Shown here: one piece after another, positions 1,746 through 5,891 of the stretch
How positions within the stretch are numbered: the first letter of the stretch is position 1
Layout of the letters: each line of letters begins with the position of its first letter
From: Shouchella rhizosphaerae
Lineage (GTDB): Bacteria > Bacillota > Bacilli > Bacillales > Bacillaceae_D
Length of the DNA stretch: 37,966 nucleotides
Assembly: GCF_900142675.1 (NCBI RefSeq)
Contig: NZ_FRBS01000011.1
Span: forward strand, 1-37,966
Reading direction: 5' to 3'
Notes under the pieces: generated by a model
Seen by the model: only the letters and a program-made list of their open reading frames with translations
Told to the model about the DNA's origin: nothing
Databases searched by the model: none
Program-made: the position numbers and the translations under genes

Positions 1746-3428
1746 TTAGGAATCAATGATTTCAATCAAATCTTCGCCAACTAGCTTAACTGCCTCATCA
1801 ATCAACGGATCAGCTTCTTGCGGATGATCAGTTTGTTTGTCTTTCATATATTCAGCCTTTATTTGCTGCCATTGTTGGTTCAGCAATGTCACAAAATCAT
1901 GGCGATTGCCAAATGTTTGCTTTAGCACTTGGCAAAGAACGCCTCGAAACTTTGTATCCATCATATCACGATGCATTTCATTTTGAAACGCTAACAGTAC
2001 CTTCGTGTCCGAAGCGGCAACGGGTTTAGAGTCGCTTAGCCATGCATGGGCAGGCACACTCTCCCCTTTTATTTTCTCCATAATCGTGCCCCACTGGCTT
2101 ACCGTCTCTTGCAAATCGGCTTTATTGGCGTTTTCTAATAGTTCACGCGCAGCGGCAGGAGTCGCCTTTCCTTGCTGTGGCGCCCTTGGCTGCACACGCC
2201 GCCGTTCCTTTTGGGCAGGCGCCGGCTCGCTTTTATCAAATGTGTTTCCCTGTTTGACTGAGGCAAGCTCCTCTTCAAGGCGCTTCACTTTTTCTTGCAG
2301 TGCGCGCATTTCTTCATTGCCCACTTGCGCCGTGTCTTGAGCAGGTGCAAGCTGCATCAATTTCATCACAGCCATTTCAAGCACGATCTTTGGCTGGAGC
2401 GCCCATTTCATTTCTTGTTGGCTTTCCGAAAGGCTCTGAATGGCAGCATAAATAAACGGCCTGCTATAAGATTCGGCCACTTGAACAAATGCATCATCAA
2501 GCACAGCTCTTTCAAACAAATCGGCTGTTTCAGGCGCTGTTTTATACAACAACAAGTCTCGATAGTATAACAGCAAATCTTCCAAAAGCCTTTTCGGGTC
2601 TTTTCCGCCTTTGAGCGTTTCGTCAATGGTTTCCAGGACGAGGCGCGCATTTTGCTTTTCCAACGCTGCTGCCAATTGATGCAGCGCTTCTCGGGAAACA
2701 GCGCCGGTAATTGTTAAAACATCTTCGGTAGAGACTTTTTCATCTGAAAAGGAAATGGCTTGATCAAGCAAACTAAGGGCATCACGGGCGCCTCCATCAG
2801 CTGCTCGGGCAATCAGCTCAATCGCCTCTTCTTCATAAGGCTGTTGGTTGCTGTCAAGTATGAACTTCATCCGATTGATTAGCGCTTCATTTGAGATTGG
2901 TTTAAAATCAAAGCGTTGGCACCGCGAAAGAATCGTTAACGGAATTTTGTGGGGCTCCGTCGTTGCCAAAATAAAAATCACATGAGCTGGCGGTTCTTCT
3001 AATGTTTTTAAAAGGGCATTAAAAGCCCCTGTTGAAAGCATATGGACTTCATCTATAATATACACTTTATAGGCAACTTCGCTCGGCGCAAATTTCACTT
3101 TGTCGCGTATATCACGTATTTCATCTACGCCATTATTGGAAGCCGCGTCAATTTCAATCACATCGACAACCGAACCAGTCGTAATTCCTACACAGGCATC
3201 GCACTCATTACAAGGTTCTGCGACTGGAGCTTGTTTGCAGTTGATCGCTTTGGCGACAATTTTCGCTGCACTCGTTTTCCCCGTCCCCCGTGGGCCTGAA
3301 AACAAGTAGGCGTGCGCAAGCTTTTGTTGCAAAAGTGCGTTTTTAAGTGTTTTTGTAATATGTGATTGCCCAACAACATCTTCCAGTAACTGTGGGCGCC
3401 ACACACGGTAAAGGGCTTGATAGCTCAT
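1746..3428 (-). CDS. dnaX: DNA polymerase III subunit gamma/tau
   Basis: A 560-residue clamp-loader ATPase. Visible elements: Walker A GPRGTGKTS (45-53), zinc-binding cysteines at 64, 73, 76 and 79, Walker B VYIIDEVHM (about 121-129), the SRC motif in LSRCQRF, then the collar domain and a charged, proline-rich tau region from about residue 370. It assembles with HolA/HolB-type subunits to load the beta clamp on DNA and tethers the polymerase. The length matches Bacillus DnaX (563 aa in B. subtilis). The start is supported by AAGGGGGGAG upstream. It heads the dnaX-ebfC-recR cluster. No slippery frameshift site was sought in detail. Confidence 0.97.
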   Translation of the reverse strand: MSYQALYRVWRPQLLEDVVGQSHITKTLKNALLQQKLAHAYLFSGPRGTGKTSAAKIVAKAINCKQAPVAEPCNECDACVGITTGSVVDVIEIDAASNNGVDEIRDIRDKVKFAPSEVAYKVYIIDEVHMLSTGAFNALLKTLEEPPAHVIFILATTEPHKIPLTILSRCQRFDFKPISNEALINRMKFILDSNQQPYEEEAIELIARAADGGARDALSLLDQAISFSDEKVSTEDVLTITGAVSREALHQLAAALEKQNARLVLETIDETLKGGKDPKRLLEDLLLYYRDLLLYKTAPETADLFERAVLDDAFVQVAESYSRPFIYAAIQSLSESQQEMKWALQPKIVLEMAVMKLMQLAPAQDTAQVGNEEMRALQEKVKRLEEELASVKQGNTFDKSEPAPAQKERRRVQPRAPQQGKATPAAARELLENANKADLQETVSQWGTIMEKIKGESVPAHAWLSDSKPVAASDTKVLLAFQNEMHRDMMDTKFRGVLCQVLKQTFGNRHDFVTLLNQQWQQIKAEYMKDKQTDHPQEADPLIDEAVKLVGEDLIEIIDS

Positions 3429-3527
3429 CGGCTCCCCCCTTCTTCTTCATTCGGTATCATTATTATAGCCTTTTCTATTTCTGGTTTAAAGAGCGCTCCA
3501 CAAAAACTTGTTTTGCCCGTATCCTTT

Positions 3528-3556
3528 TTGCTCGCAAGAACGTTCTTATTTATATA
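3528..3556 (+). promoter_or_regulatory. Sigma-A promoter of the sigma/ClpP operon with palindromic spacer
   Basis: TTGCTC (3528-3533), a 17-base spacer and TATATA (3551-3556), about 27 bp before the sigma gene. The spacer contains the perfect 12-bp palindrome AAGAACGTTCTT (3536-3547), a natural position for a repressor or autoregulator to block RNA polymerase. It resembles a LexA site (GAAC and GTTC arms), but the four-base gap of a LexA box is absent. Confidence 0.55.
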
Positions 3557-3582
3557 GAAAGCAAAAGAAAGGAGGTGCTTCG

Positions 3583-4248
3583 ATGACAAGCAACCGCACA
3601 GCTGACTTTCAAAAGGCTTGGGATAAATACGCCCAAAGTACAAAGAATCACTGTTTGGCTTTAACAAAAAATCGCTGGGAAGCGGAAGATTTATACCATG
3701 ACACATGGCTCAAAGCTTGGTCCCATTGGCACAAAGCAGGCTTAACTCGACTCACAAATGCTTATTTCACTACGATTGCCAAGCATACATTTATCGACCG
3801 CTGCCGTAAAACCAAAAGGCAGCCTTCGCAAAAACCTTTGGTTGAGGGAAGTGCTGCCATGTTTAACGCCGGCTCAGACATTGATTATTTGCTTAAACCG
3901 CTTGTATCAAGCCTGACAGTCAAGCAACTAGGCATGTTTTTGCTTGCAGACGTGTACAAATGGCCGTTAAAAGACATTGCCCAGGCGTGCCAGCAGTCAC
4001 TAGGATCTGTGAAAGCCACTCTGTTTCGGGCACGGCAAAACGTATCCAAACATGTGCGCGGACATTTGGAGAAGGACTGGCAACTGGCAGACGAGCAAGC
4101 TTTGCATGTCCAACTGCTTGTAAAAGCACTGACTGAAGAAAATACCGCATTGATTGTGCAATTGGTAAATGAGACCGTTCCAGCGTCTGTTTTGTATAGC
4201 AAGGATATGAAAATGCAAACGCCAGCACCACAGGCGCTGGCTGCTTAA
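3583..4248 (+). CDS. ECF-like sigma-70 family factor ending in an SsrA-like ALAA tail
   Basis: A 221-residue protein. Region 2 is visible at about 22-76 (CLALTKNRWEAEDLYHDTW... YFTTIAKHTFIDRCRK) and region 4 helix-turn-helix at about 105-157 (LTVKQLGMFLLADVYKWPLKDIAQ... GSVKATLFRARQNV), with no region 3, as in ECF sigma factors. About 60 extra C-terminal residues (LVKALTEENTALIVQLVNE) recall the start of a SnoaL-like extension and end in PAPQALAA. The last four residues equal the end of the SsrA tag read by ClpXP. The ATG at 3583 is chosen because GGAGGTG lies seven bases upstream. The gene is on the opposite strand to its neighbours and runs 19 bp before a clpP paralogue, so the two probably form an operon. 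Target promoters are unknown; no anti-sigma gene is adjacent. Confidence 0.85.
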   Translation: MTSNRTADFQKAWDKYAQSTKNHCLALTKNRWEAEDLYHDTWLKAWSHWHKAGLTRLTNAYFTTIAKHTFIDRCRKTKRQPSQKPLVEGSAAMFNAGSDIDYLLKPLVSSLTVKQLGMFLLADVYKWPLKDIAQACQQSLGSVKATLFRARQNVSKHVRGHLEKDWQLADEQALHVQLLVKALTEENTALIVQLVNETVPASVLYSKDMKMQTPAPQALAA

Positions 4249-4267
4249 GTAAAAAGGAGCGACTTTG

Positions 4268-4849
4268 ATGAACATACCGATTCCATATGTGATGGAACAA
4301 ACCCATTACGGGGAGCGGAGTTACGACATTTACTCTCGTCTCTTGAAAGACCGGATTATTTTTATCGGCGATGAAATTACCGACACTCTTGCGAACAGCG
4401 TCACAGCCCAACTGCTTTTCCTTGCCTCTACCGATCCTGAAAAAGACATTTCCATTTACATTAACAGCCCTGGCGGCTCCGTTTCTGCGGGCTTTGCCAT
4501 CCTCGATACGATGCTCTACATCAAACCAGATATCCAAACGATTTGCACCGGGATGGCCGCCTCATTTGCAGCTGTTCTTCTAGTAGGAGGGACCAAAGGC
4601 AAACGCTGCGCTTTGCCCCATGCAGAAGTCATGATTCATCAACCTCATGGCGGCATGAAAGGGCAAGCGTCTGATATGGACATTTACGCACAGCGGATTT
4701 TGAAACAACGCAAAGAAATTAACCACTTCATCGCGGAAAGGACTGGACAAACGCCTGACAAAATCGCCACCGACAGCGAACGTGACTACTTTATGAGCGC
4801 TGCGGAAGCAAAAGACTATGGCGTAATCGATAACATTCTTCCAGTCTAA
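4268..4849 (+). CDS. ClpP-like serine protease subunit (paralogue)
   Basis: A 193-residue ClpP peptidase. The catalytic triad is intact: Ser99 in GMAASF, His124 in MIHQPHGG, Asp173 in SERDYF. The oligomerisation and substrate-channel motif [11 protein letters not shown] is at 66-75. ClpP forms a tetradecameric barrel that degrades proteins fed by a Clp ATPase. The start ATG at 4268 has AAGGAG eight bases upstream. It is probably not the housekeeping clpP, which normally stands elsewhere in Bacillus; the divergent stretch [20 protein letters not shown] and the coupling to a sigma gene support a specialised paralogue. The nearest upstream gene, the sigma factor, ends in a ClpXP-type degron, suggesting that it is a substrate (inference). 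No Clp ATPase is encoded nearby, so it would borrow ClpX or ClpC. Confidence 0.9.
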
Positions 4850-4857
4850 CTTGTATC

Positions 4858-4890
4858 GAGCGGCGGCAGGTCACTGCCGCTCGTTTCTAT
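4858..4890 (+). terminator. Terminator after the clpP paralogue
   Basis: GC-rich hairpin GAGCGGC / GCCGCTC with a T-rich tail (GTTTCTATAT) starting nine bases past the clpP stop. Confidence 0.75.
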
Positions 4891-4925
4891 ATAATATTGC
4901 CAAGTATGAAAAGTCTTTGGCTAAA

Positions 4926-4969
4926 ATAAAAACGCCCCATTCAGCCAGGCAATACTGACCGATGGAACG
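4926..4969 (-). terminator. Terminator of the SRP RNA transcript
   Basis: On the minus strand CGTTCCAT pairs with ATGGGGCG (two G-U pairs) and is followed by TTTTTATTTT. The loop holds a second small stem. It lies about 65 bp beyond the mature 3' end of scr, consistent with a precursor that is trimmed. Confidence 0.6.
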
Positions 4970-5034
4970 TCGTTTCATTCATTTCGTTTTTAAGCTATGC
5001 GGCACACATTATCTCGCATCTACAAAAATATAGT

Positions 5035-5310
5035 AAATACCGTGCACCTTTCCTCGATAACAGCGCCACAAGCGTTACCTGAGCAGTTAGCTCGATCCAG
5101 GCACCTCTGCGGCACACGGAAGGGTCCACTTACTGCTGCTTCCTTCCGGACCTGACAGGGTTCATGGGTTTCCGTTGCGCAGAACCCAAACGTCAACACC
5201 ACTTACTCAGGGCAGGCCTTGCAGCACCGAAACCTCAAAAAGGGATTCAACCTCGCTATAGCGGATTGCGAGTTACAGGGCACCGCTACCTCCCCATCTA
5301 GCACGGCAAA
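5035..5310 (-). ncRNA. scr: Signal recognition particle RNA (large Bacillus type, scRNA)
   Basis: The minus strand shows the hallmarks of the roughly 270-nt Bacillus SRP RNA. Near the 5' end is the Alu-domain segment GGGGAGGTAGCGGTGCCCTG. In the middle is the universally conserved Ffh-binding hairpin (CAGGTCCGGAAGGAAGCAGC, about 5130-5149). The closing helix is GCCGTGC (5301-5307) with GCACGG (5041-5046). The RNA scaffolds Ffh and HBsu in cotranslational targeting of membrane and secreted proteins. It lies between tadA and dnaX as in B. subtilis. The ends are estimated from the closing helix and may be off by a few bases; a 5' leader of about 35 nt is probably removed by RNase III. Confidence 0.95.
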
Positions 5311-5352
5311 TTGTAAATAAAGGTAAGCACCTAAAGGTAAGGTGCAAGTTCA

Positions 5353-5381
5353 AGTATACTAGATCGACTAGACAAATGCAA
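5353..5381 (-). promoter_or_regulatory. Sigma-A promoter of scr
   Basis: Minus-strand TTGCAT (5376-5381), 17-base spacer, TATACT (5353-5358). The start would fall about 35 bases before the mature SRP RNA, in front of a small hairpin (GCACCTTACCTTTAGGTGC). This fits a precursor processed at its 5' end, as known for B. subtilis scRNA. Confidence 0.75.
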
Positions 5382-5384
5382 CCG

Positions 5385-5891
<507 letters not shown>

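What the first reader, a model, noticed from the sequence alone, without database searches (positions are those of the whole stretch)
3583..4849. Sigma factor with an SsrA-like ALAA end, cotranscribed with its own ClpP paralogue
Seen: an ECF-like sigma gene ends in codons for QALAA and is followed 19 bp later by a clpP paralogue with intact Ser-His-Asp triad; both lie on the strand opposite to the dnaX and scr genes between which they are inserted. Known: ClpXP recognises the ALAA end of the SsrA tag in Bacillus. Inferred: the sigma factor is a built-in ClpXP substrate and the operon encodes both an unstable regulator and the protease core that removes it, a possible self-limiting switch without an anti-sigma factor. 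I know of no described system of this design.
Basis: partly seen in the sequence, partly recalled or inferred. Interest (0 to 1): 0.8.

Follow-up and report, generated by a model that had tools for sequence, protein, structure and literature searches.

The report
Self-destructing sigma factor controlling spare ClpP
Many Bacillus-type bacteria carry a two-gene unit: a transcription switch whose tail ends like the cell's own 'destroy me' tag, and a spare copy of the protease core, so the unit probably turns itself on when the cell runs short of protein-degrading capacity.

Summary
Confirmed: in a Shouchella clausii-group genome an ECF sigma gene (3583-4248) ending QALAA precedes a clpP paralogue by 19 bp; the genome's tmRNA tag ends FALAA. 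All four alanine codons occur at both positions. A shared promoter, CCGTATC-17/18-CGTT, precedes the operon; in two genomes where clpP lies elsewhere beside the sigma, clpP has its own copy. Housekeeping clpP has a CtsR box and not this promoter (24 of 24); linked sigma genes have no CtsR box (0 of 90). In B. anthracis a like-arranged operon rises 200-300-fold without clpX (PMC8419472, passages). Best reading: ClpXP destroys the sigma; when ClpXP is short, the sigma survives, fires its own promoter and makes more ClpP. Precedents exist (ECF115, sigma-AntA, PopR/clpP3P4, the B. anthracis operon); the clpP-tracking degron and shared promoter appear new within the papers searched.

The parts
3517..3523 (+). 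-35 element CCGTATC of the conserved promoter
   Evidence: Pattern CCGTATC-16/18-CGTT found once in the window, expected 0.04, 3 of 100 shuffles with one or more; same element upstream of linked homologues
3541..3544 (+). -10 core CGTT, 17 nt after the -35
   Evidence: spacer 17 nt in 53 and 18 nt in 23 of 76 sites
3570..3575 (+). ribosome-binding site AGGAGG of the sigma gene
   Evidence: Sequence
3583..4248 (+). ECF sigma factor gene, 221 aa
   Evidence: Pfam regions 2 and 4; ECF superfamily TIGR02937 43.6 bits, cut-off 42.9
4234..4245 (+). codons for the C-terminal ALAA, the proposed ClpXP degron
   Evidence: [A/V/I]-A in 84 of 89 intact linked homologues, 5 of 53 unlinked; own tmRNA tag GKENNNFALAA
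4255..4259 (+). ribosome-binding site AGGAG of clpP
   Evidence: Sequence
4268..4849 (+). clpP paralogue, 193 aa
   Evidence: Pfam 267 bits; PRK00277 302 bits, cut-off 249; sigma-linked ClpPs split from the others in a tree
4857..4883 (+). terminator-like hairpin after clpP
   Evidence: 10-pair stem followed by TTTCTATATA; 5 terminator-like sites in the stretch against 1.7 in shuffles

Best explanation
A proteolysis-controlled sigma/clpP homeostat. The sigma factor recognises its own promoter (CCGTATC-17/18-CGTT), from which it and the ClpP paralogue are made. No anti-sigma gene is in the operon; the C-terminal [A/V/I]-A, here ALAA as in the SsrA tag, delivers the sigma to ClpXP, so the operon stays off while ClpXP has capacity. 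When ClpXP is lost, inhibited or saturated, the sigma survives, amplifies its own operon and supplies extra or substitute ClpP core, which restores degradation and shuts the loop. Shown by sequence: the degron pattern, its link to clpP, the promoter, its presence at relocated clpP genes, and separate CtsR control of the other clpP. Shown by others in B. anthracis: strong induction without clpX. Inferred: direct ClpXP degradation of the sigma, autoactivation, the paralogue's role, and saturation as the natural trigger.
For: 84 of 89 intact clpP-linked sigmas end [AVI]A, 5 of 53 unlinked ones do; after clustering at 40% identity 16 of 18 against 3 of 18, Fisher p=3e-5. In the 75 ending AA, codons GCT, GCA, GCC and GCG are all used at both positions, and positions -3 to -12 vary more, -3 being Met in 51 of 90. 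Background 1 of 343. Own SsrA tag ends ALAA. Promoter in 58 of 70 linked genes found by sigma similarity alone, against 1 of 43 unlinked, with 3 A-ended unlinked ones counted apart (2 of 3); 76 of 90 in the enlarged set, 0 of 90 in reversed strings. In L074 (clpP upstream) and L120 (clpP divergent) clpP has its own copy of the promoter. 24 of 24 clpP loci outside the operon (the 24 best-scoring of 26 genomes) have a CtsR box and none has this promoter; CtsR boxes at 0 of 90 linked sigma genes. B. anthracis: clpP2 over 300-fold by QPCR, and sigma-70 and clpP2 nearly 200-fold by microarray (Claunch 2018, as cited), up in the clpX mutant (PMC8419472, passages).
Against: No half-life, binding or transcription data for any of these proteins here. 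clpX loss is pleiotropic. Five intact linked sigmas lack the [AVI]A end (four end AS, one SV), and three [AVI]A-ended sigmas have no clpP in the stretch held (L041, L159, L171). 14 of 90 operons miss the promoter pattern and 5 miss a relaxed one (the relaxed form had no control). In B. anthracis each clpP mutant alone is more sensitive to several antimicrobials and swapped complementation failed for penicillin (PMC8419472, passages), so ClpP2 matters with ClpX present and is not purely a back-up.
Confidence: 0.8

Rival explanations
1. One reading: the sigma is a ClpXP substrate and mainly the co-encoded ClpP paralogue removes it, giving a self-limiting pulse after an unknown inducing signal.
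For: Same operon and degron data; catalytic triad kept in 88 of 88 linked ClpPs.
Against: All 26 genomes checked have a ClpP match away from the sigma gene (in G502 only a 131-codon piece) that could serve ClpX; the like-arranged operon is kept low when clpX is present in B. anthracis (PMC8419472, passages).
Confidence: 0.1
2. ECF115 proposal: the C-terminal extension is an inhibitory domain, and Clp proteolysis of it activates the sigma factor.
For: Extension of about 70 residues and Clp neighbour fit the published description (PMC8999054, passages).
Against: Conservation lies in the last two residues more than in the extension; loss of clpX raises the like-arranged operon instead of silencing it (PMC8419472, passages).
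Confidence: 0.05
3. The alanine end is chance, or a by-product of translational coupling or an RNA hairpin, and the sigma is controlled otherwise.
For: In the window the last codons lie in a weak hairpin (z -1.97).
Against: Codon diversity at both positions, clpP-specific conservation over 24 families, low background.
Confidence: 0.03

Closest known systems
B. anthracis / B. thuringiensis sigma-70 - clpP2 operon (PMC8419472, passages; Fedhila 2002 only as cited there)
   Same: Putative two-gene operon, sigma first, second clpP; strongly induced without clpX; clpP1 promoter has a CtsR site, clpP2 none
   Different: No degron, promoter or mechanism in the passages seen (terms ssrA and autoregul: 0 occurrences); sequence not compared here
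ECF115 group (PMC8999054, passages; the classification paper itself not held)
   Same: ECF group, example from Bacillus sp., with a C-terminal extension of about 70 residues and Clp protease neighbours
   Different: Listed under activation by proteolysis of the extension; the terminal di-alanine end is not mentioned in the passages seen
Sigma-AntA, ECF282, Streptomyces (PMC7142297, passages)
   Same: ECF without anti-sigma, C-terminal Ala-Ala in 67 of 71 orthologues, ClpXP substrate in vitro and in vivo
   Different: Controls antimycin genes; no clpP link described in the passages seen
PopR / clpP3clpP4, Streptomyces (PMC9765437, passages)
   Same: Activator destroyed by the housekeeping ClpPs drives a second clpP set when the first fails
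   Different: A ClgR paralogue, not a sigma factor; other phylum (recalled)

Membership tests
ECF sigma factors | Sigma70 regions 2 and 4 only, above cut-offs | tested here: met
   (TIGR02937 43.6 against 42.9)
ECF115 | C-terminal extension of about 70 residues | tested here: met
   Region 4 match ends at residue 152 of 221
ECF115 | Clp protease gene in the neighbourhood | tested here: met
ECF115 | Match to the ECF115 model | not testable with these tools
   Classification paper not held; its models are in none of the libraries offered
PRK06704 sigma (NF005217) | Score at least 256 bits | tested here: not met
   68 bits
ClpP protease | PRK00277 subfamily cut-off and catalytic triad | tested here: met
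   302 against 249 bits; triad
ClpP equivalog TIGR00493 | Score at least 308.6 bits | tested here: not met
   293.5 bits, as for a diverged paralogue
Directly proteolysed ECF (sigma-AntA type) | Conserved C-terminal di-alanine | tested here: met
   AA in 75 of 89, [AVI]A in 84 of 89 intact linked homologues
Directly proteolysed ECF (sigma-AntA type) | Degradation by ClpXP | not testable with these tools
   Needs a bench assay
PopR-like back-up logic | Second clpP induced on loss of the first protease | tested here: inconclusive
   Published for clpX loss in B. anthracis only; not tested here

The most novel reading that the evidence does not exclude
A widespread, previously unrecognised ClpXP-capacity sensor of Bacilli: an ECF sigma factor with an SsrA-like end competes with tagged proteins for ClpXP, so its level reads out free degradation capacity and rebuilds the protease core through a dedicated paralogue, without any anti-sigma factor.
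Probability: 0.6. Interest if true: 0.75.

Novelty: new variant of a known kind. Interest (0 to 1): 0.64.

Why it matters
It offers a simple mechanism for the 200-300-fold induction of a second clpP when clpX is lost, for which the passages seen give no cause, and a reason why Bacilli with this operon keep two ClpPs under different control. It predicts that ClpXP inhibitors or an overload of tagged proteins switch on a spare ClpP, which bears on ClpP-targeting antibiotics. It would also extend sigma-AntA-type control from one Streptomyces pathway to a broad class of Firmicutes sigma factors.

Tried and rejected
Rejected: chance ALAA (background 1 of 343); RNA or coupling constraint (all four Ala codons used); a broad regulon in this genome (strict motif 4 hits against 6 for the backward control, only the operon site having the run of T after it). 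Extra motif sites: 20 of the 67 order-wide hits were opened: 8 preceded further sigma genes of this kind, all ending AA; 2 an NAD-dependent epimerase-like gene, 1 a VOC-family gene, 1 an MFS-type transporter (these three names come from reading the translations, no profile search); 8 had no convincing gene start. So up to 8 of the 76 motif-bearing operons were chosen by the motif itself; the count without them is (58 of 70).

Led nowhere: the plasmid search gave 39 records, all under 60% identity; two of the 39 were opened and had no clpP annotated nearby. NF005217 found no member above cut-off in 398 and 32 genomes, so the B. cereus-group sigma could not be read. Fedhila 2002 and the ECF classification paper are not held. 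PMC8103513 (passages), PMC2654142 (one passage) and PMC9753991 (no hit) held nothing on this operon. A first CtsR count scanned one strand of the linked genes and was replaced. No structure prediction was run.

Literature searches behind 'appear new': (open-licence PMC only; listings, with passages read in six papers).

Full report
What is there. The window comes from a Shouchella clausii-group genome: the two named relatives found are S. clausii and S. tritolerans at 90% sigma identity. Between divergent dnaX and the SRP RNA lies a two-gene unit on the + strand: a promoter at 3517-3544, an ECF sigma gene at 3583-4248, a clpP paralogue at 4268-4849 and a terminator-like hairpin at 4857-4883. 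The sigma ends PAPQALAA; the genome's own tmRNA tag is GKENNNFALAA.

Relatives were gathered by sigma similarity in the family (41 genomes, 29 with a match), the order (397 genomes, 396 with a match, listing cut), the class (398 genomes with NF005217, 17 with a match) and 32 chosen genomes (16 with a match). From the order list I read the 30 loci returned plus 60 places, most of them unread hits with open frames of about 215-292 codons, and later 20 promoter-motif places. Over all loci held, after removing identical proteins, there were 143 sigma ORFs; 90 had clpP downstream on the same strand, in 89 genomes and 24 families (the family labels are the anonymous ones of the tables, typed in). 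The gap, estimated from the ClpP alignment, is 14-196 bp and at most 35 bp in 81 of 90. One sigma (L034) is frameshifted. Of the other 89, 75 end AA, 8 VA, 1 IA, 4 AS and 1 SV. Of 53 without downstream clpP, 5 end [AVI]A: L074 (clpP just upstream), L120 (clpP divergent), and L041, L159 and L171 with no clpP in the stretch held. Three more unlinked ones end in SA or CA. Clustering at 70, 50 and 40% identity keeps the contrast (54 of 58 against 5 of 40; 42 of 46 against 4 of 27; 16 of 18 against 3 of 18).

Protein-level constraint. Among the 75 ending AA all four alanine codons occur at both positions (GCT 49, GCA 12, GCC 8, GCG 6; and GCA 50, GCT 15, GCG 6, GCC 4); stops in the 90 are TAG 46 and TAA 44; the preceding residues are more variable, though Met stands at -3 in 51 of 90. 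In the first 12 aligned homologues the tails align poorly before the end. In 400 kb of this genome 1 of 343 ORFs ends AA.

The promoter. Upstream of the sigma start codons lies CCGTATC-17/18-CGTT, often CCCGTATCTTTT followed by CGTTTATA. It was found in 58 of 70 linked genes collected without using the motif, 48 of them in the strict form, and in 1 of 43 unlinked; 3 A-ended unlinked ones were counted apart, 2 with the motif. In the enlarged set 76 of 90, reversed-string control 0 of 90; a relaxed form 85 of 90, without a control. In 249 genomes of the order the long form has 67 hits in 58 genomes against 6 for the backward control. In L074 and L120, where clpP is not downstream of the sigma, clpP has its own copy. 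That natural rearrangement is the best sequence evidence that the sigma drives clpP.

Two clpP genes, two controls. Of 26 genomes with the sigma, 25 have at least two ClpP matches; in G502 the one away from the sigma is a 131-codon piece. The exception, G209, has one, and its sigma (L041) has no clpP beside it. In the 24 loci of the highest-scoring ClpPs away from the operon, one for each of 24 of the 26 genomes, 24 of 24 have a CtsR box (at most 2 mismatches) upstream and none has the sigma promoter. No linked sigma gene of 90 has such a CtsR box. In a tree of 118 distinct ClpPs the 28 others form one group, support 0.93, into which three linked ones (L044, L165, L166) fall; all 88 linked ones keep Ser, His and Asp. 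L044 is also the one linked sigma ending SV, yet its promoter region is close to the consensus, so this case is unexplained.

Mechanism. In B. anthracis clpP2 lies in a putative operon behind a sigma-70 gene; without clpX, clpP2 rises over 300-fold by QPCR and both genes nearly 200-fold in an earlier microarray cited there (PMC8419472, passages). No cause is given in the passages seen. A ClpXP-destroyed, self-activating sigma explains it directly. That this is the same kind of operon is inferred from gene order and description; I could not read that sigma's end.

What is known. Sigma-AntA sets the precedent for a di-alanine ECF degron (PMC7142297, passages). PopR sets the precedent for a protease-destroyed activator of spare clpP genes (PMC9765437, passages). 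ECF115 records the sigma-Clp neighbourhood (PMC8999054, passages). New here, as far as the searches show, are the conserved degron that tracks clpP linkage, the shared promoter, and the loop they imply; the classification paper behind ECF115 could not be read.

Limits. Nothing here measures stability or transcription. Whether housekeeping ClpP, the paralogue or a mixed core destroys the sigma, and which natural stress triggers the loop, is open. The genome samples are not a census: the order list was cut, so prevalence is a lower bound.

Noticed in passing
L179 and L180 near the middle; L119 downstream of the sigma gene: An NAD-dependent epimerase-like gene carries the same promoter in two genomes (G200, G225), and a similar gene lies just behind the clpP-less sigma in a third (G209): a possible second regulon member. 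Names from reading the translations.
   Followed up: partly
L045 and L194: The same promoter motif precedes a long (319-codon) ECF sigma relative in L045 and a VOC-family-like gene in L194, so neighbouring ECF families may share promoter specificity.
   Followed up: no
L008, L034: Two sigma genes of this kind appear frameshifted; in L034 another frame just before clpP ends MVA.
   Followed up: no
L058, L168, L232, L236: Four linked sigmas end in Ala-Ser instead of Ala-Ala: perhaps a weaker or adaptor-dependent end.
   Followed up: no
L165, L166, G570: Two linked sigmas of another family end AVA and their ClpPs group with the ClpPs outside such operons; G570 has four ClpP matches.
   Followed up: no
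window 1746-5882: The place between dnaX and tadA holds the operon only in the loci of the window's own genus among those held; elsewhere the operon sits at other sites.
   Followed up: partly
window 4221-4241: The last sigma codons form an inverted repeat that reads as a terminator-like hairpin on the minus strand; weak on the plus strand (z -1.97).
   Followed up: partly
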